Below are positions 5,441 through 61,242 of a stretch of DNA of 64,000 nt, in pieces. The stretch's first letter is position 1, and each line of letters begins with the position of its first letter. The notes under the pieces were generated by a model. That model had not been told where the DNA came from, made no database searches, and worked only from the letters and a program-made list of their open reading frames with translations. A program made the translations under genes and the position numbers. Source of the stretch: Trissonchulus latispiculum (lineage: Eukaryota > Nematoda > Enoplea > Enoplida > Ironidae); contig JASAND010006797.1 of assembly GCA_030248195.1 (NCBI GenBank), positions 1-64,000 of the forward strand, given 5' to 3'.

Positions 5441-5497
5441 TTTCCACTAAAATATGACAGTGGCTGTATAGTGATTCTTCTGTATACACACATCTGT

Positions 5498-37863: not shown

Positions 37864-39654
37864 TTCAGCAATATCCACATAATTATCTTTGCATACAATA
37901 TGGGCCCTGACATATTTTACGCAACACATTAGGCTGATCAGATTGGGAGAAGGTACCATCTGCATCAATCGGCCGCAAACATGAAATTTTGGATCCTACG
38001 GATCCGTCAATGAAATTTAACAATCCGTAACTTTCAACCTGAAATCTCGCAACACAAAGTGCTCTGTTGTCGGCCGACAACAGGAAATTTATTATTATAG
38101 GAATGGTACCTCGGTGCCAAAATTCCCCTCTAATTGTATTTGTACTTATCCGAGATTTTCAAGGAGTTGGCCAGTCAAGGGGGAAACCCCTTTGAATGGA
38201 GCTAACGGGTGTTCACGATGCGGTGAAAGCAGCGTGGCCACTTCTGCTCTGGCAGTAGCCTTGCCTATGCCTCGGGTAATTGCGATATGCAATTATTCAG
38301 TGTCATACCGTGGACCCAGTACAAGATTTGGTATGGCACTACCCCTCATCGCGAAAGCAACTGGGGTGTGGCACTAAGGGAAAAAAACTAATGTTGCTTT
38401 TCTTAAATATTTTTAACACATTTTAGAAGAAGTGTAATTTTCCAGAATTTTTGCAGACTCGAGTAAATTTTTTCGCGAGACATCGGTTATATCATTCGAT
38501 ACCTCCATCAAATAGCTAGGGACGATTTTTTATTTATTGTGAAATCGCTCTTCGTTATAGAGATATAAGCTGAAATGTGTGCGTAACCTGGATTTTGCCT
38601 ACTTTTTCCAAATTTGTCAAGCGTTTACTATAGCTAGAAAGCAGCAATCGGGGCAACTAAAAAATCGTCCCTGGGTATATTTGTGGAGAACACATTTGTT
38701 CAGTAGCAGCCCCTCAGCTCGCATTGTGAATGCTCCACAATCTTTGAAATAAATTGGTCGTGTTTTTGCAAAAACTGCATTTTTTATGATAGCAGCCTAC
38801 AGGATAGCAGTTGGAAGACGATCATGCGTCGGATTATTTGTCCCTGTGAGACCTTGCGTAGTTCAAGAAATGTTGGATTATTTGATTTCTGCAAAAATGA
38901 CAAGTTTTCGACGCCAAAACAAGAAAATCGGCTATATCTCACGGTTGAGAAAAGCTAGAAACTTGTTTTAAAAAGCAAAAATGTGAAGCTCAATGAGATC
39001 TTTCAAAAGAATATGGTGATAACTGTATGCCTGCTGTCAAACTGTCAGAAATTGGGAAAAACCACTCTGACCGGAAATCTCGAATTTTTGAATCGGGATT
39101 GCGCGGAGGGTGTCAGAACGCTAAAAGAACTTATTTCGAAAAGTTTCATCAAATTTTATCTTGATTTACGCCGCCAAATAACAATATGTGCCCAAAAGGA
39201 ATCACCACCTTAAACGGTTAATTCTATCTTTAAAGTTTAAACGCATTCTTAATACACCTTTTCCATATCACTAGGTATGAATTTGTGAGGAAGCTTATCA
39301 ACGTAGCTATTTATTTATATCATACACTTGATTAGTACTAACAAAATTAGGAATGATCATCACTCTGTGAACTATGTCGAAATTTAAAGCTTGACATTAT
39401 ATAATTATTTACTGGAAGCAGCTCACGCCTTTCTTTTGGTGAGGACTCGACACCGTTTAGGTTCCTCGTGAGTCCTGTCAGGTGTTCCTCTACGCAGACA
39501 GCAAACGGACAAGAGGCGGAGAAATCATGCATTTTACGAAAGATAGATTGCAGGCTGTTGTAGTAAGGAACCTCATCCATTTAGCAAACGTAAATTAAAA
39601 CAAAGCTACGGTAAGCGTAGCGTATATTTGAGCGTAGATTTAAAGCGTAGCTGG
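37864..39654. other. Gene-poor stretch before the LTR element
   Basis: No supported gene. A plus frame at 38114-38377 and another at 38786-38971 have no recognisable motif or splice context. A run of CGTAGC/GCTACG words at about 39604-39652 immediately precedes the LTR insertion and recurs near 59530-59600 on the far side, so the retrotransposon may have landed in an older repeat. Confidence 0.5.
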
Positions 39655-40193
39655 TGTGAAGTTTGACTATGCTGAACTTAGTAAAATGCTGTTGCCTTAC
39701 TTTGGACTACTAGGATAAGACTAAACTACAGGTGAATACCGGTGGTGTGTGATGTTGGCGAAATGGAGGATCCTGACCGACTAGAAGTCACTTTGGCGAT
39801 TACAACGGTTTATTAAATTCTAAGCAAAACTTGATGACAAGAGTTAATACAAAACATTAATTTTAACCAAAAGCATAAACTTTGATAAACACCAAACAAA
39901 CAAAAGCCCGGCAGAAGCCGACAGTGCGACAAAGGTGACTTAACCAAACCCAAAGATAATCTCCCCAAATCCGAACCTAAGCGTCACTACCCAACCACTC
40001 TTGATTAACTTACACCCACAACTGCCACAAACCTACCCAATATGGCGAATCACAACTATTAGCTAGCCAGACCTATGAATTTAGACAGAAGTGATGCAAA
40101 ATCATTGAATGTTTGTCAAAATGTAATACTAATTCACTTAGGCTTAGCAGCTCGCATAGAATTTATATCTTTCCTGTCGGTGCTAACTTCACA
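39655..40193 (-). repeat. 3' LTR
   Basis: 539 bp, TGTGAAG...CTTCACA with 7-bp terminal inverted repeats. Compared with the other LTR there are about nine substitutions and a few short indels, including AAAGCCCGG against AAGG near 39901. Confidence 0.95.
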
Positions 40194-40200
40194 TAATACA

Positions 40201-40209
40201 CCCTCTTTT
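40201..40209 (-). other. Candidate polypurine tract
   Basis: On the minus strand AAAAGAGGG lies seven bases before the 3' LTR. A polypurine tract usually touches the LTR, so the priming site could instead be degenerate. Confidence 0.45.
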
Positions 40210-43086
40210 GGCCCCGGGCGGCCTCGGACGGGTCCACTCAGTTAGACGATAAAAAGAATGTTACTCACAGGTACCTTAGGTACTAGTAAAGATAAAACTT
40301 TTGTGAAAATTACGTAAAGATAAAATGAAACGACAGCGGTGAACATACACCATACCACGGTTGAGCACACAACTTTTCTAACATGCTAACCGGCCAACGA
40401 TAAAACTACTCGTAACTGAATCGAGACATTTTTGACAAACTACTACTACAAAACTTACTTACCTACGTCAAAGCCTACGTAAAATTTTCAAATTCCCGCC
40501 CGAGATCACCCAGGTACCAAAAGAGTAAGGTGCAACGACAGGAAACAAGATCAGAAGAGAGAACAAGACCCTATTGTAAATATGTATAAAGATGACAAGT
40601 AAAATTATTATGCATGTAGATATCAAACAAAAATGCAAGAAATCAAAAATTGTACATGTAATTAGCAGCCGTAATGGAATGAAGTAGTACGAATAATGCC
40701 AAACAAAGAGAATACTAGATTAGTAAAAACAAGGCAAGAAGGAATAATGTCATCAAAGAATTGCATTTTTTCATGAAAAGAACAAAGAAAATTTGGAATG
40801 TCGGAGAAAGACCAAACCAAACCGCTTTTATTAAATAAACAAAACAGACAGAAAAGTGATAGTGAAAAACTAGCTATACCGACACCGACGATTACAACGG
40901 CCATACCGAGGTGGCGAACACCCTGACGAAAAAAGAAAGAAAATGTAGTCAACTGAACCCCAATTTTAAAATTTGATCCCTGCGGCACCCTCCCTTCAAA
41001 TCACAACCAATATAATAGGACCCGAAAGAAATACCAATCACCAATACACTGATTAAACAACAACACAAAAATCACAAGATTAGGATGGGGGGACAGTGTC
41101 ACAGGTGTGCGATGGAAGAGACACCGGCGGTATACTCCCCAGCACCGCAGACAATGCAATTCCAGACCGGAAACAATCACTGAACCAAAACCCCTCTAGC
41201 TGGACCCTACCAGAGCGAACCGTACCAGGCCTCGAAGGGTCTCCTGTCAAAATCCACGGAGTCTAACCCAACCCAACCAAACCAGGACCAAAGTCACGCG
41301 GGACTGGAACCAGGCACAAATTATGGCCAAGCAAGCCGTGCACCGCCTGGCCCAGCAACCCCATGGCGGCAGGTAGACCAGGAAGAGTTCACAGACCGAA
41401 AAGGCCACAAGGCAAAGGCAGAAGGCCCCCAAACCTTCCAAAGGCCGGAAAACCGACGGCCAAACCTGACCAAGAGCCGGCAAGATGGCAGACGGAAGCA
41501 GGCAGAATAAGCCTGCCCCACGGCAAAATAGGCAGGAGAGCCACAGGTACCAGAACGACCATGGCCCCAGTCACCATAGAAGCAACAATGGAACGCAAAG
41601 CCCCCCAAAAGTCCAAGAAGCCAAGCCAAGGAGGCCAATAGAGCAGCGCTCTCCAAGATGGAACAGACAAGCCAAAAAGCATGCCCGCCGACAGCAAAAG
41701 GAGGCCGGACAGCCATAGGCAGACCACCGGGGCGAACACTATCCCAGATGGAATCAAAGCAAAGGACGCAAAGCGCCCCACAAAGTCCACATAGGAGGCC
41801 AAAAAGGCCACCACCAAATGGTGCCAATCCAAATGGCTACCACACAAAAGCATTGTGCGGCCCAGAGTCAAAGCCGACGGCCAGGCCAACCAGACCGAAA
41901 CAAATCCTCAGCCGCCCAACCAAACAACCAAAGACCAGACCATGGTCAGAACCAGCAGTTCAAAGGCCTGGCAGGAGAAGAACCCAGTAGGGACCCAGCA
42001 CCTACAACCACCGACCCGTCACGGCGGTACCCAACCGCGCCAGACCCAGCGCCGAAGCAAATGGCCGGTAAAATCCAACCCAAACCAGCTGACACAATTC
42101 CTGGGGAGCACACCCGGCACTGAGGATGGGGGGTCGGCACCGACACAGCAGACAAAAGGTTAGCTAAAACACACAAAACAAAAAAGTAAGGCAATCAAAT
42201 AAAGCACGAAAGAATCATGATTAGCAAATGGCAAAATTAAGCAAAACAAAATATTGACGATACATAGTTACAGCCCCACCTATGACTTTAGTAGCTCCAG
42301 AACCAATGGGAGAGACGCAGCCCCGCTTAGCGGAGGAGAAACCCCATAGGCCTGTGCTTATCAAAGAGAATCTCAAGGCTAAACTAGATGAAACGGAATC
42401 AAAAAGGAAAAAGAATGTTAAGGAGCGTGCGGCCCACCTCACCCGGTGTGCGGAGACCGGAGCGACCCGCAACTTAACACTCCAAAAGAGAGTGGGAAAA
42501 AGGTAGGAGCACCAAAAGTTAAAAGTTGTAAAAATGTTAAAAAAGAAAAAGTCCAATCTGCTGTGTGGAATTTAGAAAAAGCAACGAAAATCAGAGGTTA
42601 AAGTTTATTCCAGTGAGAAAATGAAAATTCAAACGAGATATAATCGGGAAAATTAACTTTAAAGTATCAAAGAGAACTGTCTATACATACTAGAATCAAA
42701 GGAAGAAGAAAATTTTTGAAATATTTACAAAACTCAAAGGATTTAATAAATAAAATACTCAAGTGAACAAGAATTTATAAATTAAATCAAGAGACCAGAA
42801 AGAAGAGAAATTTATCAAAGGACTTTCTGATTCATTTGTAAAGAAATCATCTAAAAGAAAAACGAAAACGACATACGTCAAGAAATCAAGTAGAATAACC
42901 CACACAGCAGATAAAAGTTAATTGTAAAAATAGTAAAAAGAAAAGAAAACGGAAAGAACCCCCCGCCCCCCATAATAATACAGTAAAAGATGAAAGAAAA
43001 AGGTAAAAAGACTTTTAAGCACCAAATTTTAGCACCAACCCGTTAAGAAAGGGGCAAGAATATACACAAGAAAACTGCATGAGAAC
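40210..43086 (-). other. T-poor (plus strand) non-pol stretch of the LTR element, coding status unclear
   Basis: This 2.9-kb part lies between the NADAR region and the 3' LTR. The plus strand is strikingly poor in T from about 40.5 to 43.0 kb. As a result, antisense frames such as 41658-41990 are Pro/Gln/Lys/Arg-rich, and sense frames such as 41889-41389 and 41827-41321 are very hydrophobic with several possible membrane spans. These could be an env-like membrane protein, an antisense product, or only composition. I see no envelope-type signal peptide, furin site or cysteine pattern and do not call a gene. Confidence 0.4.
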
Positions 43087-43772
43087 TCAGGGCGGGACGA
43101 TCCGACCGATCGCCGCCCGGTGGGCCTGCTGCCGCTCATTCCAAAGATCTTCCATTTCACGATTCAAATTTGGAAACAATTCGGCGCGCAAAATCATCAT
43201 AACCTTTCCTAACCAGTTGCGATTTTGTTCCATATGCACGCGGATAACCTCGCTGATAATCTGATTATGCGACAAATTGTTCAATTGATTTTTGTTCAAC
43301 CCAATTCCCCAATATGGGTCATGGGTTGCTTCAACCAGCAGTCGGCAACCAGAATCGCGCAAAAAATCTACAAAATCTGGGCAGGATTTGGCCTTTGCAC
43401 GAAGAACCTCTAGCGTAACAAACGCCCGAACATGCATATCTTTGCCTTGCCACATTTTGCGAATAACCGAATCAGGTGGCAACCAACCCAAACTTTGTTC
43501 AGCCGCAAATTTGCAGTAGAATGGATTCAAATACCGCGCGCAGGCCTCGGCTGGGGCGTGCCAGCAAGTGAAAAAGAAAAGTTTCCGAAATTGATAAGCT
43601 TGCTCAGATGTTTGAAAATATAAACCCACAGTTCGACCCACCCGTTTGCACCCGGAACCTTTTTCGGCTCCAGACGAAACATATTAGAAGCCGGGTCATT
43701 AGCGCCTTGAAAACTAGCAATCGGATGAAAATAGTTAAAATTCGATGCACGCATCAAAACATGACCCAACAT
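43087..43772 (-). pseudogene. NADAR (YbiA-like) domain in the LTR element
   Basis: The 184-codon frame 43641-43087 matches the NADAR family pattern. It has SEQAYQFRK (E13, Q17, K20, the family's SEH-x2-Q-x2-K block), a central W-x-G-K-D segment, LLVEATHDPYWGIGL (E104, D108, W111, G112) and NRNWLGKVMMILR (N142, G145). The family N-terminal SNF-x-P-I block is in another frame just upstream (43772-43640, SNFNYFHPIASFQG), so one frameshift near 43640 splits the domain. NADAR enzymes are N-glycosidases; members act on riboflavin intermediates, and related ones remove ADP-ribose from guanine in DNA. The C-terminus is a short coiled-coil-like LNREMEDLWNERQQAH. It is on the same strand as pol, inside the LTRs. 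Confidence 0.78.
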
Positions 43773-46700
43773 TCATCAGTGACTTCCTTTGCCACCTGAA
43801 CCATTCTCTTAGACCTTACTGACCAGATCCTAAGCAAATCTGCCGACTGCTGGAAGCGCGAAACAGAAGGATAAATATTGAGAAACGGAAAAAAAATCGC
43901 GAAACAAGATCAGCTAATGCGGCAACTTTCTAATGAGCAAAACCAACAACTTGAAAAGACTGAAAAAGCCGGAAATAGCCGGAAATTTGATAGAAAGTTT
44001 CCAATATTCAGGTTCTTCCAAATGAATGCGATAGGAAGGATGCGAAAGAGGTAGGAAGGATGCGAAAGAGGCTCCAATTTATCCCATTTGATATCAGGAC
44101 TTGCCTCTTTATAATAAATAATAAAATAAATAAATAAATAAATAAATAAATATAAAAAGGGTCTTTATAATATCGAAATACTTTTCCATCGCAAAATCAG
44201 TCAGTGAAAATGGAGCATATTTCAAAGTCCTCAAATAGTTATCCCAATATTTGAAAGAATGCGTGAAATAAGGATTCATAAGTGTAGGATCCATTTTGGA
44301 AGAAAAATCAGGCAAAGTCACAACCTGCCACTCAAATTCCGAATAAACCCGCCACGGGACTGCCCTGCGGTCATTTAAAATAGCTGACCAAACTGCCTAA
44401 TGGTAATGCGGGTCGATTTCTTGTGGACCTTCGTACTTAGGAGCCCCCAAAAGGGCACCGTCATCAGTGGCAAGGGCCAGCGACGGAGGTTTCATAGACT
44501 TGATTTCCAGATCTAAAGCAAACCCGCTAGGACGCGTAATGTGCGGCGGTGGATTCGCACAAAAACGAGGAACCGGTTTTTCCACCAAACAACGCGCGGA
44601 ATACTTGTACAATACTGACTTCGAATTTGCAGGATGTTCCCAAGGGGCTGCCGAACACTCAAACTGCTGATTCATACTCGCAAAAGACAAGAAATGTTCG
44701 TCAGGCCACCGAATCGTATGAGACGGTGGGATTGTTGCAGGGTCCTTCAATGAAAAGGTCTGCAAGGGAATATCCAATTTCAAAGGAGGAAGATGTTCAT
44801 CTTTGTGAAGTGGAAAAGTCCGTTTCGCATACCTAGGATCAGTCGAAAGAGACTGTGAGGCCTCCTGAGCATCCGCAGATGCGGAAGTCCCAGGTTGTCC
44901 AGAAACGGACGAAGCCTCGTCCGAGCTAAAACGTAGCGTAGTACGTGAAGCCGGGACTGATGATGAACGAGAAGGGCGATTTGTGCCCGGAGTAGGAGCA
45001 AACATCGGGTCGGGAGTCAATCCCAAACCTGCAGATGGAGTGCCGGCAAGCGGGACGCCCCCTTGCTCCGGAAAAGTCAAACCTGGAAAAATAATTTGCA
45101 AAAGTTGAGGCATAGAAAAATCAGCGCGCGACATCAAAACATAAACAATTTCAATAGCATCCCATGGAACTGGATAACCAATCCAGACAGACAAAATTTC
45201 CCTAGAAAAACCCAAAGAGGCGAGGACCGCAAACTGAAGGTCTGTTGAAATTTGAGGCATGCGGTGCCAAAATGCATCAGAAAAAGAAGTAAGAGCTGCA
45301 ACAGGTAATGAGCCCAGACAAGGAGTGCGAAAATTTAAATGTGGCATATACCACGCAACATGTGAATAGTCCGCCTGTTGTAGATTCGACTGATTTTGCA
45401 CGTTCCAGATAGGGACTGTAGGGGAGGGGGAAGGAGAGGTAGGGGCGGAACGGGAGGAAGAACGGGGAAGGGACATACGCAACGGACAACTCATGCGCGG
45501 CTGAAAAGTAGACGTAGGCACCGGTTGATTTCGTAAAAATTGAAAAGATTCACTAAAAGTGGGAGGGCGCACAACCCCTGTTTGAGTCGAACTAACAGCT
45601 GCACAGGTAGAAGACGCAGCTAAATTTAGGCGTTGCGGATCCGGCCAAGCTCCGGGGGGAGCTGAAACCGGCTGGAGAGAAGGTTCCGCAGCAATTTGTC
45701 CCGACAGAGAAAGAGAATCAGACACCAAATTTGCAGGTAGCAAAACTGAAGCAAGACGCGGGGGCCCTTGTTCGGCCTGCAGCGGCAGAACCAATTGAAT
45801 ACAGGGCTGTTCTAAATTTACCAACGAAAGCGAGGAATTTTCATTCGGGTGAAAAACTACATCGCCCAAACTAACTGTCGAAGCTGTAGTAGCCGGTGGA
45901 AAAAGTTGATCCATAATTTCATCTTGAGAGAGAGAGACCGGAGGGGGAGGGGCAGGAGGAGCCGAGAGGTCCTCGGTCTCCATAGGGACAACGACAGAAG
46001 GAGCCGGAGAGGGAATGGGAGGGGGGGAATGATGTTAACGGACGGAAGGGAGGAAAAAGAAGACGTTTGCGTCAAAAAAGGCTCTGCAAATGGCTGAAAA
46101 TTTCCGGAAGCTGGACCCGGAGTGCTGCAGGCAGCGCCTTCCTCGCCGACAACCGCAGCCGGCCCAGGTGGAGCCAGAGGCAAATCCCGCTCGGTGCGGG
46201 ACGGAGCCTCCACCCCAGAAAAACCGACCTGCGACGGCGGAGCCAGCGACGAGGAAGGGCCTACGAACACCGCCGAATCCGAGGGAGACTGATTTTCCTC
46301 TGTATAAACAACATGAAAAGCCGCTGCCGGCTGATTTGACTGTTCAGAAAGGGGAGAACGGGTAGCGGATGGAATAAGAGGACGGAGGGGGGTGGAGGGA
46401 AAAGATATATCCCCAGCTGGAACTTCCTCCTGGGATGGTGGCCGAGAGGGCACCTCCCATTTCGGAGGAGGCGTCTCCTGCCTGGGCTCATTTTCAGCAT
46501 CTGAAGAATTTGAAGAGATGTCCAAAATTTGTGAGGGAAGCCCCTCTGGCACCTCATGCTGCTCTGCAGCTTTTTCGTCCAGTTTGCGCTCCTCGCGCGC
46601 TTTGTCCGGTTTCTGCGATTTTGGAGCAAACGTGTATTCCGGTTCCTCCCCGGCTAACTCAATTTGCTGTGCACTCGTAACCAAGACAGGGTTTGGACGA

Positions 46701-46873
46701 TCCCCAACAGAAGTAAACAAGTCAGAATTCAGCTTATCTTGATCGGGCAAAAGTTCCAGACGCGGAGATTTAGACAAAATTTTTACGTCCACTAACTTTT
46801 GAGAGTGACGCCTGTCACCATCAATATGCGCAATTTGAAATTTGGACAAAGGTCGAAAAACAGGCTCATCCAT
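43773..46873 (-). pseudogene. Proline/serine-rich accessory ORF upstream of NADAR
   Basis: It begins with an ATG at 46873 (MDEPVFRPLSKFQIAH) and runs 338 codons. It shifts frame near the G-run at 46021-46028 and continues as a 528-codon frame (45983-44397) to a TAG at 44397. The same frame resumes to about 44161, with PWRVYSEFEW and YWDNYLRTLKYAPFSL segments, before a (TAAA)n tract at 44112-44150. Composition is Pro/Ser/Thr/Glu-rich and probably disordered for most of its length. There is an ordered-looking patch around 45000-45330 (WYMPHLNFRTPCLGSLP onwards). No known domain is recognised. It likely formed one protein with the NADAR region, a flexible tether ending in the enzyme. Confidence 0.6.
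44112..44150. repeat. (TAAA)n microsatellite
   Basis: About nine TAAA units interrupt the accessory ORF of the LTR element. This is consistent with decay or a later small insertion. Confidence 0.85.
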
Positions 46874-46948
46874 AATATGCGCAAGAGCCGAGCCTTAAAG
46901 ACGTTCTAGCGTATCAAACTGCGAAACTTGACTCACAGTTTTTGTGCG

Positions 46949-48327
46949 CTACAGCAATTGAAAATGTTCCGTAGAAAAGGACGGGCAAGCGTGTAACAAG
47001 CGCTGAACCACGAGAATCAAGTCAACTGCATCTTTTATCGCATACGCAATTTCTGAAGGTTTGAGAAAAGACATGAAACCATGCGCAGAAATTTCTTTAC
47101 ACAACCGCCCCGGATATTTGAGAACGTGTTGCAGCAACCACCCCATGGAGAGGTTATCATGCAGTTTGGGAGGGGGAGACACCGCTGATTATTCTCATCA
47201 AACCAAATATGTGGGCCCCGCCATGGATGTTCAGGGTCATTCTCAGGCGGGAGTCCCTTTAGAGCCATTCTGCGATAAGTAAAACGATAAAAATGATTGA
47301 TATCTACTAAAGAATTTCTGGCATCAATGCCCAGGTTGCCGAGAATCCGACGCGCATCACACAAAGCGCCGACCGCCAAAATTGGAAACGGAGTGTTATA
47401 GAGCAGCGGTTGTAACGCATAACGTAATAATTTTCAGGACGGGACTTGGAGGTAGATGGCGTGAACCATCACCACCGTGATTCTCAGACCAGACTCGCAC
47501 TGGGATTCTACAGTCGGATTCAAGGCGTCAATTCGTTCACGAAAAGCTGTGATATCTGTTGGGACTGCAATGTCGTCGCAGACTGGCCCTTAGGGATATC
47601 CAACCATTTCTGAGAATGGCCCTCAACATCCAGAACAAGAAAGCCCGCCTCCCTAGCCCAGAAAAATAAATCTTGGACCTCACCAAAGAGGTCTGCAATG
47701 TCCGTGATAATACAAGTGGCGGAACGTAACTTTTCAGGCAAAAACGTAGCCTGGTGAATTGTATTCAGCCAGTCTTCCCGCCAGCGTCTGTCGGCGTCGG
47801 AAGCGAAATCAATCTTAGGGGGAGGCTTTTCTGCAAAAACAAGGCTCAAATCTCCTAAAGAAATGGGGGGCAACGGTTCTGTGTTAGATTTCCGTTTTTC
47901 TGAGCGTTCCCGTTTCCGAGAAGATCGAGACCGGCGTGGAGTCACTGCCTTTTGTGAACGTGTCGCTTTCTGAGATTTCGAGGCAGGACCCGGGGAGGGG
48001 TCCGAGACTGTATCGACATCAACTGTGACCTCCTCTGAGGTATCTTTTTCAGATGGCTGGTAACTCGCATCCGATTCCGAAGTAAGAGATTTTTTCGTCC
48101 GCTGAGAGCGGCGTAAAGGATTCTGAGAGCTAGGAGGGGCACCCACTTCTGAAAGCTTTTTCCAGTCCCGGGTCGCCCCTTTTTTCCTGGAAAGTTTCTG
48201 ACAACGGTTGCTCAGGGCTAGATTCCCGTTCCGACGTTTCGGATTTATCTTGGTGACGGCGTTTTCGAACAATCTTTCTGCCCGACAGACGCTGTGGCAG
48301 ACTAACTGACCCTACACACTCAAACAA
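46949..48327 (-). pseudogene. DEDDy-type 3'-5' exonuclease-like accessory ORF
   Basis: Three overlapping frames carry, in order, the motifs of a DnaQ-fold DEDDy exonuclease (RNase D/WRN/EXD type). Motif I is VLDVEG (Asp at 47630, Glu at 47624). Motif II is AVGALCDARRILGNLGI (Asp at 47358) followed by a VDI step. Motif III is SEIAYAIKDAVDLI (Tyr at 47044, Asp at 47032), the Y-x3-D signature, preceded by a WLLQHVLKY helix and an SAHGFM segment. The N-terminal 180 codons are basic and serine-rich (RSRSSRKRERSEKRK), probably nuclear-localising or RNA-binding. Frames shift near 48180, 47575, 47400 and 47170. No ATG opens the first frame; a possible splice acceptor (GTGTGTAG) lies at 48305. Such enzymes trim DNA or RNA 3' ends with two metal ions. 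Confidence 0.68.
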
Positions 48328-49017
48328 TCAAAAATACCACATGATGTTTCTTCCTGAACTGGTCCAGAAAACAAACCAAACGTGGACAAGAACCCCAGAA
48401 GGCCTCCTGACCACTGAACCAAAACAGGACTCGCAACCAAACAAGTGACCAAACCAGCTCTGAAACACAAATAAATGTAGTGCATTACATAGAAGTGAAA
48501 AGAAAAGCCACGTTCATTACGACAAACAGAAAAATTTATAGAAAAATTAAACCCAGAGAAATAGAAACCAAAATACAAAGAAACGTCAAAGAACGAGAAC
48601 CTCAAGGGTACCCGAAAGTACGTATTCAAGAAATTTCAAGATTCAATGCATCAAAATTAAAGAAATACGTATTGTACAATTTAAGAGGGGTCAACGGTAA
48701 AGTTTTAAAAGAATGAAAAGGACAACAGAATTTGTAAAATTTAATCTAAGAGAGAATACGTATATACGTATACAAGAAAACATCCAAGAAAATCTATGGA
48801 AAAAGAATTTTATTTACCAAAACGGTAGGAACCAGGTTGGTGCCAAATAGAGTACACAATTATATAAGCGCCTAAAATAGTAAAAAGTAAAATAGAGTTA
48901 AAAGCTAAAACAAAGAAAACGATGAGATCACGCTAGAACAAAAGCTATAAAAGTGAACAAAGACATAGGTGAGGCATACAGACAAAATACATAAGATACC
49001 AACAATACAAGACGGAA

Positions 49018-50103
49018 CTAGGTGAGGAACGGCTTGAGACGATTTACGTGAATTTTTTCCGTAGGAGGGTCTGTTTTAGTAGTGGGCTGGATTTCGACAT
49101 TAGGAGGTGCGAGAATTTTGACCACCCGGAACGGTCCCTCGAAGACTGGCAAGCACTTGCGGCTTGCACCCTTTGGTATATTCGCCTTTGCAATATCTTT
49201 TCATACTAGCATACCTTCTTTGTAATCAAGTTTCTTAACATTCGCATCATAATCGTTTTTACGCTTTTTCAAGATTTTTTTCATCTCTTTCAGTAAATCA
49301 CGAGAAAAACGTAAGCGTTTGCGCAGGTCTTGGACGCACGACGAGTTGAAAGGTCTAGTTGTCGGATCAGGCATTTTCAAAAAGTTTTCAGAAAACAAAC
49401 GAGGATCACGTCCATGCAAAAGATAATATGGAGACTCTCCGGTAGAGGCATGTGGGGCTGCCCGGTACACGAACAGCACCCAAGGGAGAAGGGTGTCCCA
49501 CTCCCGCTCAAAAGCCAATATACATTTGCGTAACATGCCTTTAAGAGTACCATTTAGGCGTTCACAAGCACCATTCGACTGTGGGTGATATGCTGTAGTA
49601 CGTACTTTTCGCGTTCCCATAAGTTTGCAAAGCTCATCCATAAGAGTAGAACAAAAAGGGGTGCCCCGATCAGTCAAAATTTCGCGAGGGGCCCCATGAA
49701 CTGCAATAATTTGTTCCGCCAAAAGTTTTGCAATAGTGTTGGTCTGTTCATTAGCCATAGCGAAGGCCCACCCCCAACGCGTCAGAAAATCAACCATTAC
49801 CAAAACTTTGGAATGACCCGCAGAAGTAGTAGGAGCATGCATGACATCCATGCTGATCCTTTCGAATGGTGCCTCTACCGGAGTAAAAAATTTCATATAG
49901 GCTTGAGGCTTGCGAGGACCAGGGTTGCAAGCCGCACATATTTGGCAGCATTCGAGGAACCGTGTGACATCACGAGAAAGAGTATCCCAATAATATCTAG
50001 CGGCTATAATTCCAATCATTTTAGGTCTCCCAACATGACAACCCCCCAAAAAGTCATTATGATATTCTTTGAGAACATATTGACGACAATCATTGGGGAC
50101 CAC
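49018..50103 (-). pseudogene. Ty3 integrase with GPF-type C-terminus
   Basis: The 300-codon frame contains the zinc-binding H15, H23, C53, C56 and the catalytic triad D86, D145, E181 (35 residues between the last two), within MDVMHAP, LTDRGTPF and NGACERLN. A TGA at 49201-49203 stops it. The same frame continues to a TAG at 49018 with VFEGPFRVVKI and HVNRLKPF, the GPY/F-like module that targets or multimerises Ty3 integrases. A frameshift near 50100 joins it to RNase H. Integrase inserts the cDNA into chromosomal DNA. Confidence 0.93.
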
Positions 50104-50873
50104 ATAAGCCGAATAGCATCAGGTAGGGGAACGCCTGTCTTATCAGTTTGAAAACGGTATAGCATGTCATTTTCATAGACAAATTTAGAAGCAGAACTAC
50201 CTACGTACGCGGCCAGCTGTAAATCTTTCGGAAGTTTGTCATTTTGCAAAATCTCAATCATTGCAGAAATAAACGGGTCAGCCTTAAGGGCCTCAGACCA
50301 AATTTCCTTTGCCGCGAGCATCGGCACAGGGTGACCCGGACCATCATCGGGACCTTCGTCGTCTATGACGTCATCTAGCAGAGCAAAAAGATATTCCGGA
50401 ATTTTCGGATATTCTGCAAAACCCCCAGCAATAGCAGGCGGATTGCGAGATAATGCGTCCGCTGCCCCGTTAACTGAACCAGGTTTTTGAATAACGCGAA
50501 ACCGAAACTGTTCAATAAAAGCACGCCAACGGGCCACCCTCCCTTCAGCCGTCTTAGGTTTTGCGGCATCGCCCAAGATGTATTCCAGGGCCTGATGGTC
50601 CATGATCACGTCAACTTTATGTAAAATCAAATAGTGTTGAAAATATGAAATTCCAAAAAAGATAGCAAGAGCCTCCAATTCAGTAACCGTATAGTTCTTT
50701 TCAGATGCATGGAGGGCTCTGGCCGCGTACGCTACTGGATGAAATTTTTCCTTATCATCTGCTTGTTGCAAAATAGAGGCTATACCCTGATAACTAGCGT
50801 CAGTGACAAGAGTAAAAGGTTTCGTAAAATTTGGATAGATCAAAACGGGTGCTGTAATTAATTTTTCCTTCAA
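50104..50873 (-). pseudogene. Ty3 RNase H and tether
   Basis: VTDAS (D25), TELEAL (E65/E67) and MDHQAL (D92) are the RNase H catalytic positions of Ty3/gypsy Pol. The preceding FETLKEKL thumb-like segment is only partly present. Between the RT frame ending at 50870 and this frame, about 20 codons typical of the connection appear to be deleted, along with a frame change. It removes the RNA strand during reverse transcription. Confidence 0.92.
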
Positions 50874-52053
50874 GGTCTCAAAAGTCGAGTCAAAGGATTG
50901 GCAATTTTAGCAAAATGAGGGACAAAACGCCGACAATAACCCGCTAGACCCAAAAAACTTTGAATGTCCTTAACAGATTGAGGGACAGGGAATTGACGGA
51001 CCACCCGAATTTTATCAGGATTGGTAGCAATGCCAGATTCTGAAAGGATGTGACCCAACAAGGCCATCTGTTTACGTGCAAATTCGCATTTTGACAATTT
51101 TAGCAAAACATGCTCTTTTGCACAACGTTGGAAAATGTCAAGCAGACGCTGCAGGTGGTGGTTCTGAGTCGGACTAGTAACTAGAATATCATCAATGTAA
51201 ACAATAAACCCTTCCATGATACGATCAATTATCCGTTGGAAGGTACTGGGGGCATTACACAACCCAAACGGCATAACTTTGAATTCATACAAACCAGAAT
51301 GGGTAATAAAAGCCGCTTTTCCCGATCAGCAGGGTAAACCGGAATTTGATGAAAACCAGAAGCTAAATCCAATTTCGAAAAAATACAATGCCCAAGAATA
51401 AGTTCAAAAAGACCATCAATTCGAGGAAGAGGATAACAATCTTTCTTGGTGACCGAATTTAATTTGCGATAATGAACACAAAGGCGCCAATCCCCATCTT
51501 TCTTTGCGACTAGAATAATCGGGGAACCCCACGGAGACCGAGAGGGTTGTATGAGGCCCTGCACCAACCAAGCGGATAATTTCTCGTCTATAATTTTCTT
51601 CTGTGCTGGGTTAACCTTGTAAGCCCGAGCACGAATAGGCCGTTTTCCGGGCTCAATTTCGATATAATGATAGTCAAAGTCGGCTTTACCAAAACCGCCA
51701 GTAGCGTCCCAGATATCAGGAAAATTGAGGATCATAAGTTTTAACCGCCGCTGCTTCCGACGGGACAGACAACTATCTTTCAAGCTAATTTTCCCATTCA
51801 AAAGAGCACGTTTTGCGGCATCTGCAGTGACCAGTGACCATTCAGGCATCAAAAGGGCAGTCGCTACCGATTCAGCTGCAGTTAGAGGGTCAACTTCGAC
51901 CTCTTCTTCAGGAGTACGTACAATATCCCCGTTCTGAGGGATACGTGAAAAGGCCTCATCAAAAAACAAATCAGTGGGATGATATTTTTCCGTGGTCACT
52001 CTATACGTACGGGGCTCGAACCCAGGTTCTCCCGGATGGATCTTACGACGCAA
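50870..52053 (-). pseudogene. Ty3 reverse transcriptase
   Basis: The frame 52053-51229 carries the fingers and palm start (RSPWGSPIILVAKKDG, DWRLCVHYRKLN, FSKLDLASGFHQI). The frame 51292-50870 carries MPFGLCNAPSTFQR and the catalytic YIDD at 51188-51199, then SFLGLAGYCRRF. A single-base loss in an A/G run near 51318 separates them. Both parts are well conserved, so the break looks recent or may be a sequencing error. Confidence 0.95.
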
Positions 52054-52244
52054 AAATTTTCGAAACTCTTTTTAGGCATGTCAGTAAGAACAGGAGCGGA
52101 AAGTACCTGTGTGGGGTCCACGCCCTCACCCTGGGGCCCCTGACCCGCAGGGAGCTCAGGGAGAGGCTGAGACTCTGACGCCCAAGACTCTACAATATCT
52201 GAAAACGCAACTGGTACCGTTGGCCAAGAATCTTTCGTTTTCTG

Positions 52245-53657
52245 TCAAAAATCGACCAAATTCTCACCCAAAAACAAACACGACTGCAAAGTTTTAACCT
52301 CCCCATCCAACATTTTGGGGGTGACCACCCCCTCTTTTAGAGGAGACTGAGGCTCAGGAGGGGCCGTAACCCCCTTGGCACACGAAGTCACTTCCGCGAT
52401 TTTTTCAGATTCGTCAAAAAATTCATTCGGATGTAGGGAATCCACCCCCTCTTTTAGCAGGAGGTCCCCTTGAGTAGAGTCAACATCACAATTAAGAACC
52501 AACCGGTCATCAAAAGGAGAGTCAGACAAAGACCCAGTAAATGGGGAAGAAATTTGCGGAGGAGGGGTCCCGAGGTCCTCATCAACAATGAATAACATAT
52601 CGTCAGTATACGTATCGACATTAACTTGGGCCCTCGTGACTGCCAACGGTACATCTAGGTTAGGGTCTGTGGCGAAATAGTCTTCAGCCGGGCTAATGGA
52701 CCCCAACACAGTAGCTTTTGATAATTCAACCGGGCAGTTTGTGGGATTTGCAACCAAAAAATCAAAAACTGTTTCCCGAGGCACAACAATCCCCCCATAA
52801 GGCAAACCACGATTTATATGTACAAAATCATCAAAAGGTTCGAACAGGTGGGGAGTCTCGGTCAGTCTTGGGGAGACCCAGGCCTGAGCCCAGACCTCCG
52901 AGGACGGAGGGACCACCACATCAACTGCCAAAACCACTGCCAAAACTGTAGAATCCCGGGTGTTCCATTCAGCTCTCAACTGATCAGGGGTGAGCAAATC
53001 GTGGTTCATCGTACCCATATAAACTTTATTCTGAGAAAGAATAATGTCCCACGAAAAAGCCTTCATAAAATCAGTGCCTAACAAAATATCCCGATAGAAG
53101 TCGGGGGCGACGTGAAAATGCCACGCAAATTGGATTTGACCAACTTTAAAAGGCAAAAATGCTTTCCCGTTAATTTCAAATAGTCACTTCCTGGTGGACG
53201 TGCAACGTGAATAGGGTCAGGGTAATGAACCACGATTTCTGCGCCCGCCCTGAAGAGACGTTCAAGGCCCCCTACTGATGATCGAAATGGACGCTCCCGT
53301 ATCTACAATTGCAACCAATTTTTGACCGTTGACATCAATCAGAATTGCTGGAGTGTTTTCATCCGCTGCTAGAACAGATTCAATGTCGATTTCTGGGACA
53401 TCCCCCGGTTCTGCGAGAGCTGAATGACCCATCAAATCAGAAATTTGCACCACACAGTGAGGACTTACCTGTGAGGCTGGTGTAGCCTCTGTTTCTGGAG
53501 GAGAAACTTCCTCCCCTTGCACATCCTGGACCCAGTTTGCAACCTCAGCTGGTGCAGGTTCTTGGGCAGGTGGTTCGGGAGGAGCCGTATAGGGAATCCC
53601 TGGACCCGCCAAAATGGGAGCCCCCCGCACACCACGAATCCGACGGCTCAGCTTCAT
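52245..53657 (-). pseudogene. Retropepsin-like protease and linker
   Basis: The catalytic VDTGAS is at about 53286-53306 (frame 53657-53262). The second half with the conserved DILLGTDFM is in another frame at about 53066-53090, so the domain is frameshifted near 53200. A long acidic linker (to 52245) of about 230 codons leads to RT. It is unusually long and Pro/Asp/Glu-rich, with no recognised fold. Confidence 0.85.
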
Positions 53658-53975
53658 TCATCCAAATATTATTCGAATCAAATTTGTTTGGCCACAACCG
53701 AAGAAAAAGGTCAGTCATCTCGCCTATATGCAGCCGAATAGCGTCAAAATACTTATTCATAAATTCGTGAGTTTGGCCATGAATAGCTGCTAATGTAGAA
53801 AAATTTCGATGAAGCAACTGAAATTTTTGAGCTACTTGATGTTCTACTGAGTCAGCGTCAAAGGACAAATTGCCCCCAAAACTTATTCCGAGGTATCCCC
53901 CGGCTGATCTGTGAGGCCCAAACGTTCATAATCGGGCTCAATCTGTAACATGTTGACAGAAAGTTGGTTGACCAT

Positions 53976-56900
53976 CTAATTTACTTGCTGAGCTGTCGGG
54001 GGTGGAGCAATTTGGGGGTTCCTACCCCCTCTTTTAGGCTGGGCCCCGCCCCCTACCGGACCATGAGAAGCTGGTACAAAATTTGCATTCAAACAGGGAG
54101 GACCGGAGGCTCTCGCTCCCGCCCCCTGGTACCGCGGCTGACCCATCGGCAAAGCCACCCGCGGACGCGCCACATACCCAGGAGCCGCCACACCTTGTGA
54201 CTGCCACTGGGACTGCGGCTGCGGCCGCGGCTGACCCTGCGAAGCTGCTGCCACGGGGGCAGATACTGTTGCGGGGCCACCGCGTAACCCTGGGACTGAT
54301 GCGCCGGGTCAGGCTGTGAATAGTATACCGGCTGAGGAGGCATCTGAGGGTAGGCCCCCACCATATCAACTTGTGCTTGAACATTTTGGTTATTCCTACC
54401 TTTGTAGCCGGGGGGAGCTTTGAAGGGTCCTTTTCCCAACAACGATCTGGGTGATGCCCCCGTTTGTTGCAGTGACGGCAGGGAGGGAAGCGTTTTTTCT
54501 TCTCCTCCATTTCTTTGAGCTTATCAAGAAATTTTGTCTCAAACCTGTCCTTCATTTCCCGCAGCTCCAGCCTGGTCGCAGGAGTCGAATCAAGGGGGGC
54601 AGCCCCGTCCCTGGAAGAATTCTGGGCGCCGACATGAAAAACTGGGACAGCAAAAGCTTGTTGATCTGCCAGTCAAGGTTTTGAAATTCGTGATTCCAAT
54701 TTGTCCAGGATACGTAGGATTTCGTCCAATTTGGGCTCACCTTTTCCAAAGTTTGATGCCAAAGCCGTCGTATATTCCGAACGAATACCGTCAAAAAGTT
54801 GTTGCACGCAGTGCCTGTCCAATTTCCAAAGCCTGAGATTGCAGCTCCGACACATGCTGGCGGACGGTTTCCCCAGGCTGCTGGACTCTCTGGGCAAAAC
54901 GATGAAATTTTTCCGAAACTGATTGTTGAGGCTTCGGGAACTGAGCGGACATCATACGTATAAATTCGTCCAGTGACTCAACAACTTTAGGACCAATTTT
55001 CGAAGCAAAAGTGAGAGCCTTACCAGACAGTTTGTTGAACATTAAGCGGGCCCACTGGTCCCTAGGGATCCCTTGCACGGTAGCTGCTGAAACAAACTGT
55101 GGTAACCAATCTTCAAACTAATCAAAAGTCGGCTCAAAACGGGGAATATCATGTAAAATTGCCATATACGTACGGTATAATTGAGCATTATGGCGTCCGA
55201 CTGAGGCGTCCGTAGCCTGCATAGTAGCTGGAGTGGGATGAGGCCTCGACCGAGGACGAGCCCCCTCTGAGTGGTCAGTGGCCACCCAGCAAACTGTCTG
55301 GTCCGATTTGGAGACTGCTGGTCCGCCTGTTGTTGAGATGAAGGAGGAGTCTGCTGAGCAGCAGGCTCTGGCGGACTCAAATAATATCCATAATTCTGCG
55401 GAGTACCCGGCACAGGGTCCGGATACATAGGAGCCAACTGGGGCTGAGACTGCTGAGACTCAAAATATTGCTGCTGATTGAGATCAAAATACAAATTCGG
55501 ATCATAATAGCCATACTGGGCATAATAGTAGTAATTTGGATCATAATAACCATAGCCATCAGCCTGGGGGCCCCCCGCCTGATGTGGCGGAGCCTGCTGT
55601 TGCTGAGGCTGCGGTTCAGGCACTGCGTGCGACGCTGATCCAGGATTATACTGACCAGGCCCATTCTGTTGGGGAGGCGGGACATTTGACTGAGCTGGAG
55701 GCGGTCCCTGGGCCGGAAGAGGCGCTGAAGACTGAGGCGTAACATTTTCTGGCCGCGAATTTTGCTGGGACTGATTATGGGTGGAAATCATCGTCGTTTG
55801 TCCAGTACCATATGAATATTGAGACTGCGGAGAGACTGGAGCTCCCCCTCCATTCGACTCTGACTGGACATGGCCGGCCACTGGGAATGAAGGACCGGGT
55901 TGGGGGGCAGCAGGGGTCGAACCCCCCGCGAGCCCGCCTGACTCTGGTGGAAGTCCGAGAAAAGCACGCCGCTCTGCAACAAGCTTATCTGTCATCCAAC
56001 CCCCGATAAAAATCTGAAATTTTTTCCAAGCTCCTAGGGTGCCCCTGAGGGAGATCTCGCACTTCCGGGTCCCGCACGACAGCAGCAGCCGCCGCAAAAA
56101 TGTCTTCCTCAGACGGTAGCACAGACTGACCCGGGGAAGCTGCCGGACCCCCCGTTGCCTCCGAAGGAGACGTAATGACAACACACACTTGCTCCAGGCC
56201 CGCAGCCGAAGCTGAATTTTCTTCCTGAATTTCTGGAGTAGGAGTCGGGGGAAGGGGGGTTGGGAGGAATTTTGGGGGGTTCGCCCCCCATTCTGCACCA
56301 ACTGATTGGGAGAAGTAACTGGAGGACCAAAAGCTTTATTCAACATCTGAGAATATGACGGCTAGAGATGAGGATTTTGGCTCGCGGCTCGGCTCGGCTC
56401 GGCTCGGGTCGGCTCGCGAGCCGAGCCGGCAACAATTTCTCCCGAGCCGAGCCGAGCCGGAGAATTGAAACTCCGAGCCGAGCCGAGCCGAGCCGACCAT
56501 ATCGAAAAGTTTTAAGTTCACTATAATTAGTTCAAACAAATAGCCAACAAATTCTATGAATTCTGTTTTCTGGTTTCAACTTTGTCGTCTAATTTTCCGT
56601 TTATCCTTGTCTTTATTCATACCTTCCTTTCACGCCAACTTAGTTTAAACGTTAGGCTGTGCTCGAAGTCGTCTTATGTATGGTGTAGTTACTAGCTAGA
56701 AAGAAATATTTTGACTTAATTATTTCAACGTGTCATATTTGGTTTTATCAAAAATATTACAATTAAAATTTGCATTGTCTTACTACTGTGGCTTTGGGTT
56801 GTTGTAGTAATTTATATGATAGCAGAAAAGGTTGTAAAACTGCTGATTATATACCAGAAATGCTTACTATTAATTTAGAGTTTGAAATTATTCTGCATAA

Positions 56901-57999
56901 TTACAATTGACGATTATGGCTACGATCGGCAGAGAGCAATTAAAGGAGTTGAAATTTGTTAAAATTTAAAAAATAATTTAAAAGAATTCTGAATTTTATT
57001 GCTGAGTTCTCAAGCATTTTGCAATTTAACAGATTATATATTCCTTTTTCAAGACTGCGGAAAACAAAAAGTTTTCTCGTGATTTTTTTCGGCGTTTATC
57101 AGTGGTTCCTTTCCATATTATATACATAGAATAAAATAATGACAGATTTTAAGAAAAACAAGCAGGAATGGGTGCCCGTCCACTTTCGTAGAATATAGGA
57201 TTTACCAAATATCAATATCATTAAACCTTATAATCCTGGACTCTGCAGCTCGCAGTGACTCGGTAATAATGGAGTTTTGGTGATTCACACTGGTACACAA
57301 AAGCTAGACAGCTGTTTTCAGTTTTTTTGTCAAAAACAACGTAGAAAATCCACAATCGGTCAAACTTCAAATTTCAAGCTGGGCGAGCCGAGCCGAGCCG
57401 AGCCGACCCACTTTCAATATTCTTCCCGAGCCGAGCCGAGCCGAGCCGGGTATGCCCGCGAGCCGAGCCGAGCCGACCACATTTTCTTCCGAGCCGAGCC
57501 GAGCCGAGCCGGAAAATCCCGGCTCGTCCTCATCTCTAATGACGGCCGCGGATTTTGCTGTGTATTAGAGGCCGACGTTTGGGGCTGGGAGGAACCTCCC
57601 GCCTGGGTCCAGTGGGGGGTGGACCTCTCGTACTGACCGGGACTTGCGCACAACAACATGGAATATTTTGATTTCGCGTAGAATTTTCCCCCCAAGTTTG
57701 CAAAGGGATCGTGGTGGGAATATAGGGGATTCCCCAGGTGCGGTAAGGGCCTCCCCTGGTCCCCGGTGGGACCCCATCCAGAAGGGGAGGGTCACGATAT
57801 TCACCCAACTCGCGCGGATCCCCCCGATCCATTACTGGCGCCTGTGTGCCTGTGCGCACCTCTGTCGCAAAACTAAATCGTTATATTCGTCCGGGTAATC
57901 TAAATTTTGTAAAAATTCAAAAAGACGTTGAATATCTTGAAGCCGATCTTCTAAGTCTCGTAAAAATTTTGGGTCAAGACCGTCACACTCCTCCAACAT
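53976..57999 (-). pseudogene. Gag polyprotein, interrupted by a hAT insertion
   Basis: It begins at an ATG at 57999, only 22 bases past the primer-binding-site start. A 55-codon helical N-terminus (LDPKFLRDLEDRLQD) ends near 57832 by frameshift. The hAT copy splits it at 56363-57538. The next part (about 56330-55240) is low complexity, rich in Gln, Tyr, Pro and Gly. A capsid-like retrotransposon-gag segment follows at 55078-54673 (DQWARLMFNKLSGKALTF). The nucleocapsid knuckle CX2CX4HX4C is at 54439-54480, followed by a Gly/Pro/Gln/Arg-rich tail to 53976. There are several frameshifts. Gag packages the RNA and forms the particle. Confidence 0.88.
56363..57538 (+). mobile_element. Non-autonomous hAT-like transposon with GAGCC arrays, copy 2
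   Basis: 1176 bp, same ends as copy 1 (TAGAGATGAG / CTCATCTCTA) and same orientation. It is flanked by the perfect 8-bp duplication ATGACGGC (56355-56362, 57539-57546). It lies inside the gag region of the LTR element, so it is younger than that insertion. The core is about 95% like copy 1, with small indels. No transposase is present. Confidence 0.95.
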
Positions 58000-58007
58000 C
58001 TACCACA

Positions 58008-58021
58008 TGACACGGTCGCCA
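58008..58021 (-). other. Primer-binding site
   Basis: Two bases after the 5' LTR the minus strand reads TGGCGACCGTGTCA. The TGG start complements the tRNA CCA end, and GACCGTG would pair with an acceptor stem of tRNA-Arg type. The tRNA identity is recalled rather than checked. Confidence 0.75.
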
Positions 58022-58023: not shown

Positions 58024-58555
58024 TGTGAAGTTTGACTATGCTGAACTTAGTAAAATGCTGTTGCCTGACTTTGGACTACTAGGATAAGACTAAACTACAG
58101 GTGAATAGCGGTGGTGTGTGATGTTGGCGAAATGGAGGATCCTGGCCGACTAGAAGTCACTTTGGCGATTACAACGGTTTATTAAGTTCTAAGCAAAACT
58201 TGATGACAAGATTAATACAATACATTAATTTTAACCAAAAGCATTAACTTTGATAAACACCAAACAAACAAGGCAGAAGCCGACAGTGCGACAAAGGTGA
58301 CTTAACCAAACCCAAAGATAATCTCCCCAAATCCGAACCTAAGCGTCACTACCCAACCACTCTTGACTAACTTACACCCACAACTGCCACAAACCTACCC
58401 AATATGGCGAATCACAACTATTAGCTAGCCAGACCTATGAATTTAGACAGAAGTGATGCAAAATCATTGAACGTTTGTCAAAATGTAATACTAATTCACT
58501 TAGGCTTAGCAGCTCGCATAGAATTTATATCTTTCCTGTCGGTGCTAACTTCACA
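58024..58555 (-). repeat. 5' LTR
   Basis: 532 bp, TGTGAAG...CTTCACA. It should hold the promoter of the element. It differs from the 3' LTR by about 2%. Confidence 0.95.
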
Positions 58556-58559
58556 CTGG

Positions 58560-60936: not shown

Positions 60937-61242
60937 ATGTATGAGCAGTTAATGGATGTCTTACTACCGGAGCCGAAAGGCCAAGAAGGTGTCTGCTCCA
61001 GCTTCCCATTGTGGGACAGCATTCAGGCGTATGAGCAGTTAATGGATGTCTTACTACCGGAGCCGAAAGGCCAAGAAGGTGTCTGCTCCAGCTTCCCATT
61101 GTGGGACAGCATTCAGGCGACGAAGCGAGAGTCATACTAGCTATGACTGATGGGGAGAGACAAAGGTTACCGCCCTCATATAGCCTCTTGGCTGAGTAGC
61201 CCGGCAATAATAACAACAACAACAACAACAACAACAATCTAC
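60937..61242 (+). repeat. Retroposon tail with 90-bp tandem duplication and (AAC)n end
   Basis: A 90-bp unit beginning ATGAGCAGTTAATGG at 60941 is repeated exactly at 61031, then unique sequence runs to an (AAC)n tract at 61210-61238. This is the look of the 3' end of a LINE or SINE with a simple-repeat tail. A stop-free frame crosses the duplication on each strand, but neither matches a family I know. Confidence 0.65.

What the first reader, a model, noticed from the sequence alone, without database searches (positions are those of the whole stretch)
43087..43800. A NADAR (YbiA-like) enzyme domain carried inside a Ty3/gypsy retrotransposon
Seen: in the pol-sense strand and inside the LTRs, a frame has the NADAR blocks SEQAYQFRK, EATHDPYWGIGL and NRNWLGK, with the N-terminal SNF...P block in the adjacent frame. 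Known: NADAR enzymes are N-glycosidases, and some reverse ADP-ribosylation of guanine. Inference: the element may use it to erase host ADP-ribosylation marks on its nucleic acids, or to alter NAD/ADP-ribose signalling, as a counter-defence. I cannot tell from memory whether NADAR-bearing Ty3 elements are already described.
Basis: partly seen in the sequence, partly recalled or inferred. Interest (0 to 1): 0.88.

Follow-up and report, generated by a model that had tools for sequence, protein, structure and literature searches.

The report
Eraser-enzyme gene inside giant retrotransposon
A giant virus-like jumping gene carries, behind its usual copying genes, a broken copy of a gene for a NADAR enzyme, a type known to strip ADP-ribose tags from guanine; a few other retrotransposons are already known to carry one, but not in this position.

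Summary
The NADAR domain is real. The frame 43683-43090 (minus) passes Pfam's cut-off (40.5 vs 35.1 bits), is the only significant hit among 1600 six-frame segments (E 8e-14), keeps 6 of the 7 active-site residues I could match, and its model matches the two solved NADARs at probability 1.00, everything else at 0.06 or less. The SNF block in the next frame exists as letters but has no statistical support. It lies inside an 18.9-kb Ty3/gypsy element (LTRs 98.5% identical, gaps set aside; CTGG target duplication), 5.5 kb behind integrase, on the pol strand. The copy is broken by frameshifts, no faster than its LTRs predict. Whether other copies carry the gene is untested: 17 own-genome searches did not complete. 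NADAR-bearing Gypsy elements are already in print for Ectocarpus (in Pol), and NADAR LINEs for oyster: a new variant, not a new kind. Counter-defence is plausible but untested; the nematode host is unverified.

The parts
58024..58555 (-). 5' LTR (532 bp)
   Evidence: Alignment with 3' LTR: 8 substitutions, 2 indels over 532 aligned bases; TG..CA ends
39655..40193 (-). 3' LTR (539 bp)
   Evidence: As above
39651..39654 (.). Target-site duplication CTGG, one side
58556..58559 (.). Target-site duplication CTGG, other side
58003..58021 (-). Primer-binding-site-like stretch starting TGG, 2 nt inside the 5' LTR
   Evidence: Read from sequence; no tRNA match tested
40194..40209 (-). Purine-rich stretch (AAAAGAGGG..) just before the 3' LTR, PPT-like
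   Evidence: Read from sequence
54037..56361 (-). gag-like region in several frames, with a CCHC-type knuckle read by eye
   Evidence: no Pfam hit for the pieces tested
53265..53657 (-). Aspartic protease, N-terminal piece
   Evidence: Pfam RVP E 1.3e-4, 22.6 bits, cut-off 20.7
50873..52071 (-). Reverse transcriptase, split over two frames
   Evidence: Pfam RVT_1 E 2.4e-8 (51232-52071) and 7.9e-17 (50873-51325)
50019..50906 (-). RNase H
   Evidence: Pfam RT_RNaseH E 1.3e-30, RT_RNaseH_2 E 1e-29
49204..50118 (-). Integrase (zinc-binding and catalytic core)
   Evidence: Pfam rve E 1.2e-14, Integrase_H2C2 E 3e-13; 82 relatives at E<=1e-10 among 623 candidates, top hit 42% identity over 82%
46949..48311 (-). 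Accessory pieces in three frames with DEDDy-exonuclease-like motifs (47639, 47370, 47050); a lead only
   Evidence: Ordered motif triple once in the window, in 0 of 100 Markov-resampled 64-kb sequences (recalled motifs, chosen after looking); Pfam, NCBIfam, PHROG, PDB and RNase D comparisons negative
44400..46034 (-). 545-codon Pro/Ser-rich open frame, no family
43530..43772 (-). Adjacent frame with ..SNF..P letters, possible NADAR N-terminus
   Evidence: By eye only; profile E 34
43090..43683 (-). NADAR domain from the SEQ helix to the C-terminus; the stop codon ends at 43087
56362..57538 (.). Later DNA transposon nested in the element (terminal inverted repeats, TSD ATGACGG)
   Evidence: 92.5% identical to 5816-7003, which has its own TSD TTATAAA

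Best explanation
The element is a giant Ty3/gypsy LTR retrotransposon that acquired a YbiA-type NADAR gene in the env/ORF3 position. Shown: the domain, its place and strand, its residues, the fold prediction, the breakage. Inferred: before this copy decayed the protein was made separately from gag-pol (probably from a spliced 3' message, as reported for ORF3s of other LTR elements) and hydrolysed an N-glycosidic ADP-ribose bond, most likely on guanine of the element's own RNA or cDNA or on host signals, freeing the element from a host ADP-ribosylation block.
For: NADAR profile hits, sole significant hit of 1600 segments. Of 11 side chains named around ADP-ribose in the P. nicotianae NADAR I could match 7 through YbiA; E43, K50, W89, E125, D130 and W133 are kept; Glu at the E125 place marks the YbiA class. 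Model pLDDT 83.7, pTM 0.79; 8bau and 2b3w at probability 1.00, the other 35 matches at 0.06 or less. No inverted repeat of 18 or more and no direct repeat over 20 nt in 40194-49200, whereas the truly nested transposon upstream shows clear ends and TSD. The LTR indel rate predicts 1.35 indels in a NADAR ORF of 717 bases (assuming the ATG at 43803), so a frame break is what decay since insertion, or assembly error, would give. Guanine de-ADP-ribosylation is shown for bacterial and oomycete NADARs (PMC11543638 passages and section 12). Other Gypsy elements carry NADAR or a working RNA demethylase (PMC9289625 abstract and two sections). Spliced 3' messages are reported for bdelloid ORF3s and Cer1's CERV (passages).
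Against: Only one copy seen. The frame is broken and the N-terminal block has no statistical support. The seventh matched residue, R79 of the LGR motif, which holds the pyrophosphates, is W or unaligned here. The phage tblastn matches are weak one by one (best E 5e-3). The codon-use scan does not prove coding: the NADAR frame scores 0.08-0.13, but the low-complexity window 41401-41700 reaches 0.13 in two frames, and the sense strand wins in every window from 40201 to 55500, apparent non-coding ones included. No relative at E<=0.001 with the single sequence; in a tree its branch is 4.2 changes per column, so its place means nothing. No call shows host ADP-ribosylation of retroelement nucleic acid.
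Confidence: 0.4

Rival explanations
1. Private passenger: a host or bacterial NADAR gene got into this one copy (transduction, template switch or insertion) and the family as a whole does not use it.
For: One copy only; own-genome search unanswered 17 times; the accessory region of about 9 kb is long, and codon use does not set the NADAR frame apart from a low-complexity stretch.
Against: Same strand as pol, no insertion boundaries found, and it follows three open frames of 263, 345 and 545 codons in the same sense.
Confidence: 0.32
2. RNA-processing role: the protein acts like SNA-3, the nematode factor with three NADAR domains needed for SL1 trans-splicing, steering splicing, capping or export of element RNA rather than erasing marks.
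For: SNA-3 biology (PMC9303266 passages); Cer1 of C. elegans uses a 3' protein, CERV, for RNA export (PMC10309623 passages). Both matter only if the host is a nematode.
Against: Host not verified; one significant NADAR segment in the window, not three; SNA-3's sequence was not obtained for comparison; active-site residues are mostly kept, as an enzyme would need.
Confidence: 0.14
3. Metabolic passenger: it hydrolyses riboflavin intermediates like YbiA and has no role in transposition.
For: NCBIfam's only match is the riboflavin N-glycosidase model, E 9.2e-10.
Against: 39 bits, far under that model's cut-off of 73.7; a retroelement has no evident use for it (inference).
Confidence: 0.07
4. No enzyme: a degenerate NADAR fold kept, if at all, as a binding module.
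For: LGR arginine not kept; frame broken.
Against: 6 of the 7 active-site residues that could be matched are kept.
Confidence: 0.07

Closest known systems
NADAR-bearing Gypsy lineage of Ectocarpus (e.g. Gypsy-12_Ec32), PMC12477816 (passages seen)
   Same: Gypsy element with a YbiA-family NADAR domain
   Different: [quoted passage not shown] here it is a separate frame behind integrase, in one copy
Tx1 LINEs of Crassostrea gigas with NADAR in ORF1 (same paper)
   Same: Animal retrotransposon with a NADAR domain
   Different: Non-LTR element, ORF1 position
Phalaenopsis Gypsy elements with AlkB m6A demethylase, PMC9289625 (abstract, sections 12 and 17)
   Same: Giant Gypsy element (25 kb) with an extra ORF for an enzyme that removes a nucleic-acid mark
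   Different: Different enzyme, plant host, activity proven in vitro
Bdelloid Juno/Vesta elements with DEDDy exonuclease or GDSL ORF3, PMC5408684 (abstract and passages)
   Same: LTR elements with enzymatic genes in the ORF3 position; DEDDy-like motifs also suspected here
   Different: The word NADAR does not occur in that paper; the exonuclease here is not supported by profiles
SNA-3, nematode SL1 trans-splicing factor, PMC9303266 (passages)
   Same: NADAR domain in an animal nuclear RNA pathway
   Different: Host gene with three NADAR domains, not in an element
DarT1-NADAR antitoxins, E. coli YbiA, P. nicotianae NADAR, PMC11543638 (section 12 and passages)
   Same: Fold and most active-site residues
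   Different: DarT1-linked members have Asp where this and YbiA have Glu; R79 of the LGR motif is not kept here

Membership tests
NADAR (PF08719) | Profile score above the curated cut-off | tested here: met
   40.5 vs 35.1 bits
NADAR (PF08719) | Active-site residues E43, K50, W89, E125, D130, W133 (P. nicotianae numbering, matched through YbiA) | tested here: met
   E27, K34, W78, E118, D122, W125 of the piece; K75, Y84, D86, R93 were not matched
NADAR (PF08719) | R79 of the LGR motif | tested here: not met
   W in the profile alignment, E in the other alignment
NADAR (PF08719) | All columns invariant in other NADARs | tested here: inconclusive
   Of 12 columns invariant in 67 other NADARs 9 match; one match (S3) is a misalignment, F and S belong to the SNF block outside this frame, G61 and R62 differ; the G is matched at G66 in another alignment
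NADAR (PF08719) | YbiA fold | tested here: met
   8bau E 4.1e-5 and 2b3w E 2.7e-3, both probability 1.00; 12 matches at E<=0.001 in the viral library, 9 of the 12 named NADAR. The model was built on a NADAR-only alignment
NADAR (PF08719) | N-terminal SNF block | tested here: inconclusive
   Letters present in the adjacent frame, profile E 34
NADAR (PF08719) | Hydrolysis of ADP-ribosylated guanine or riboflavin intermediates | not testable with these tools
   needs protein
Ty3/gypsy LTR retrotransposon | Paired LTRs with TG..CA and target-site duplication | tested here: met
Ty3/gypsy LTR retrotransposon | Order PR-RT-RH-INT with Gypsy-type relatives | tested here: met
   named relatives of the integrase include transposon 412 and Tf2 Pol. 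The order alone would also fit BEL/Pao (recalled); no RT tree was built
[quoted passage not shown]
   NADAR lies about 5.5 kb behind the integrase
SNA-3 | Three NADAR domains | tested here: not met
   One significant NADAR segment in the window
DEDDy exonuclease ORF3 | Profile or structure-sequence match to DEDD exonucleases | tested here: not met
   No such hit for the pieces searched; RNase D scores within shuffles: 838, 144 and 775 of 1000 reach the three scores
DEDDy exonuclease ORF3 | ExoI, ExoII, ExoIII motifs in order (recalled patterns) | tested here: inconclusive
   Present once, 0 of 100 resampled sequences, but chosen after looking and spread over three frames

The most novel reading that the evidence does not exclude
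An animal retrotransposon lineage has independently assembled a nucleic-acid maintenance kit in its ORF3 region, a DEDDy-like 3'-5' exonuclease plus a NADAR guanine-ADP-ribose eraser, because its host ADP-ribosylates guanine in retroelement RNA or cDNA as a defence. That would be a further, separate NADAR capture by retroelements and would point to an undescribed animal defence.
Probability: 0.1. Interest if true: 0.85.

Novelty: new variant of a known kind. Interest (0 to 1): 0.5.

Why it matters
NADAR enzymes reverse guanine ADP-ribosylation, yet their physiological role in eukaryotes, animals included, is largely unclear (PMC11125620 passages). If several retroelements (Ectocarpus Gypsy, oyster Tx1 LINEs, this one) captured it separately, which is not shown here, that would suggest that removing such marks helps a retroelement and would make guanine ADP-ribosylation of element nucleic acids a testable host defence. 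The separate 3' position would also suggest action in trans rather than as part of Pol.

Tried and rejected
Own-genome search for NADAR copies: the same request was sent 17 times and never answered. Protein search with the single NADAR piece: 136 candidates, none at E<=0.001. Viral-contig scans with the NADAR piece (1 stretch, not confirmed) and with an integrase alignment (3 stretches, none confirmed). No Rfam match at gathering score and no tRNA in the window.

DEDDy exonuclease: profiles, PDB and RNase D comparison negative. The genome-contig scan with E. coli RNase D found 202 relatives and kept 80, all of enterobacterial genera as I read their titles, too alike for a useful profile; none was used.

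Tree of NADARs: the window branch is 4.2 changes per column, so origin (bacterial, phage or animal) cannot be read from it. The 67 rows were picked by hand from the 120 listed hits, themselves the best of 6769.

The invariant columns include the window itself; one search recounted on the other 67 and showed mismatches (G61, R62). The codon scan does not separate the NADAR frame from a low-complexity stretch and favours the sense strand everywhere; I therefore lowered the main reading from 0.42 to 0.40 and raised the passenger reading from 0.30 to 0.32.

Paper searches for novelty: in open-licence PMC papers only, several with capped listings (20 of 104, 5 of 12321, 12 of 349, 10 of 91). In what was listed, PMC12477816 is the only one I found on NADAR retroelements, and none had a title or abstract start about NADAR behind integrase or in a nematode LTR element. 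De Souza and Aravind 2012 is not held.

Full report
What was claimed and what is there. The frame 43683-43090 is open for 198 codons and holds the three blocks. Pfam NADAR matches residues 6-155 of the 184-aa ORF at 40.5 bits, cut-off 35.1, E 4.4e-10. PHROG 1017, a family of unknown function, matches at E 2.1e-10, and NCBIfam's riboflavin N-glycosidase model at E 9.2e-10 but far below its cut-off (39 vs 73.7 bits). By tblastn 202 phage records match at an E limit of 10; the 20 listed have 27-30% identity and E from 5e-3 upwards, and 5 of the 20 are annotated as NADAR. A profile of 67 other NADARs gives 48.2 bits, E 7.9e-14, and none of the other 1599 stop-to-stop segments of the window is significant.

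Residues. Section 12 of PMC11543638 names 11 side chains around ADP-ribose in the P. nicotianae NADAR: E43, K50, K75, R79, Y84, D86, W89, R93, E125, D130, W133. I matched seven of them through E. coli YbiA (E48, K55, R79, W89, E125, D130, W133). The window piece keeps six, as E27, K34, W78, E118, D122 and W125. R79, in the LGR motif, is W in the profile alignment and E in the other. K75, Y84, D86 and R93 were not matched. Glu at the E125 place is the mark of the YbiA class, Asp of the DarT1-linked class and His of phage gp30.3. Of 12 columns invariant in the 67 other NADARs the window matches 9, one of them (S3) by misalignment; F and S belong to the SNF block outside this frame; G61 and R62 differ. 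Activity is likely but not assured.

Fold. With the 67 NADARs as alignment AlphaFold2 gives mean pLDDT 83.7 and pTM 0.79. Foldseek finds in the PDB first 8bau (P. nicotianae NADAR with ADP-ribose, E 4.1e-5, probability 1.00) and 2b3w (YbiA, E 2.7e-3, probability 1.00); the other 35 of 37 matches have probability 0.06 or less. In the viral library 12 matches reach E 0.001: nine named NADAR, one part of an RNA-dependent RNA polymerase protein of Ingleside virus, two without a name. The alignment was NADAR-only, so this is a consistency test rather than independent proof.

The N-terminus. The letters RASNF..HP lie in the neighbouring frame (43772-43530), but that frame scores 0.7 bits, E 34, and its best local match is another stretch. 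That part of the claim rests on position and eye.

The carrier. LTRs 58024-58555 and 39655-40193 differ by 8 substitutions and 2 indels over 532 aligned bases, begin TG and end CA, and are flanked by CTGG on both sides. The whole is 18.9 kb. Pol pieces in order are protease, reverse transcriptase, RNase H and integrase. The top integrase relative has 42% identity; named ones include transposon 412 and Tf2 Pol. I file it as Ty3/gypsy, without an RT tree. A 1.18-kb DNA transposon with inverted ends and a 7-bp duplication sits in its 5' part; a second copy is at 5816-7003.

The accessory region. Between the end of integrase and the 3' LTR lie about 9 kb. Open frames of 263, 345 and 545 codons precede the NADAR in the same sense. 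A codon-use scan trained on pol gives the NADAR frame 0.08-0.13 per codon at 42901-43500, but 0.00 at best at 43501-43800; of the 18 windows from 42901 to 48300, 14 have a sense frame above 0. This is weak evidence: the low-complexity window 41401-41700 reaches 0.13 in two frames, and the sense strand wins in every window from 40201 to 55500, including ones that look non-coding. No inverted repeat of 18 or more and no direct repeat over 20 nt was found in 40194-49200. One 18-base AT-rich direct repeat pair (42927 and 48874) brackets the block, probably by chance.

Breakage. Between protease and the end of integrase (about 4.6 kb) the Pfam-supported pieces change frame four times, with further in-frame stops; the LTR pair gives 0.0019 indels per base per copy, which would predict about 9 indels there, frame-keeping ones included, and 1.35 in a NADAR ORF of 717 bases counted from the ATG at 43803. 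The rate rests on two indel events, so it is rough. The NADAR break is no more than decay since insertion, or assembly error, would give, and is no sign that the gene was dead on arrival.

A second enzyme? Pieces at 48.3-46.9 kb show FLVLDVEG, GALCDARRIL and EIAYAIKDA, which I recall as ExoI, ExoII and ExoIII-like motifs of DEDDy exonucleases. The ordered triple occurs once in the window and in 0 of 100 Markov-resampled sequences, but I chose the patterns after looking, the motifs are in three frames, and the profile and pairwise comparisons were negative. It stays a lead, worth following because bdelloid LTR elements carry DEDDy ORF3s (PMC5408684 abstract and passages).

What is known. [quoted passage not shown] the authors suggest a part in processing RNA intermediates (PMC12477816 passages). 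Orchid Gypsy elements of 25 kb carry an active AlkB demethylase as an extra ORF (PMC9289625 abstract and sections 12, 17). NADARs also occur in nidoviruses of nematodes, crustaceans and insects and in other RNA viruses (PMC9503650 passages). Nematodes use the three-NADAR protein SNA-3 in SL1 trans-splicing (PMC9303266 passages), and Cer1's 3' protein CERV exports its RNA (PMC10309623 passages). No call tells which organism the window is from.

Reading. Most likely an element gene in ORF3 position whose product removed ADP-ribose from guanine; the private-passenger reading cannot be excluded because the own-genome search did not complete (17 calls, listed under Tried and rejected). Novelty: a new variant of a known kind.

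Noticed in passing
56362-57538 and 5816-7003: Two copies of a ~1.2-kb DNA transposon with inverted TAGAGATGAGG-type ends and 7-bp target duplications (ATGACGG; TTATAAA), 92.5% identical; one is nested in the LTR element.
   Followed up: partly
46949-48311: DEDDy-exonuclease-like motifs in three frames of the accessory region; not supported by profiles.
   Followed up: partly
44400-46034: 545-codon Pro/Ser-rich open frame with no family; the same frame goes on after one stop to 44112.
   Followed up: partly
41100-42000: GC-rich (56-57%) stretch, long open frames on both strands, no single frame favoured by codon use; low-complexity.
   Followed up: no
19564-20375: Array of 16.6 copies of a 49-bp unit, 92% matches.
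   Followed up: no
60939-61118: Perfect 90-bp tandem duplication.
   Followed up: no
17579-18231 and 5485-5687: Stretches that match their own reverse complement at 78-79% (large imperfect palindromes).
   Followed up: no
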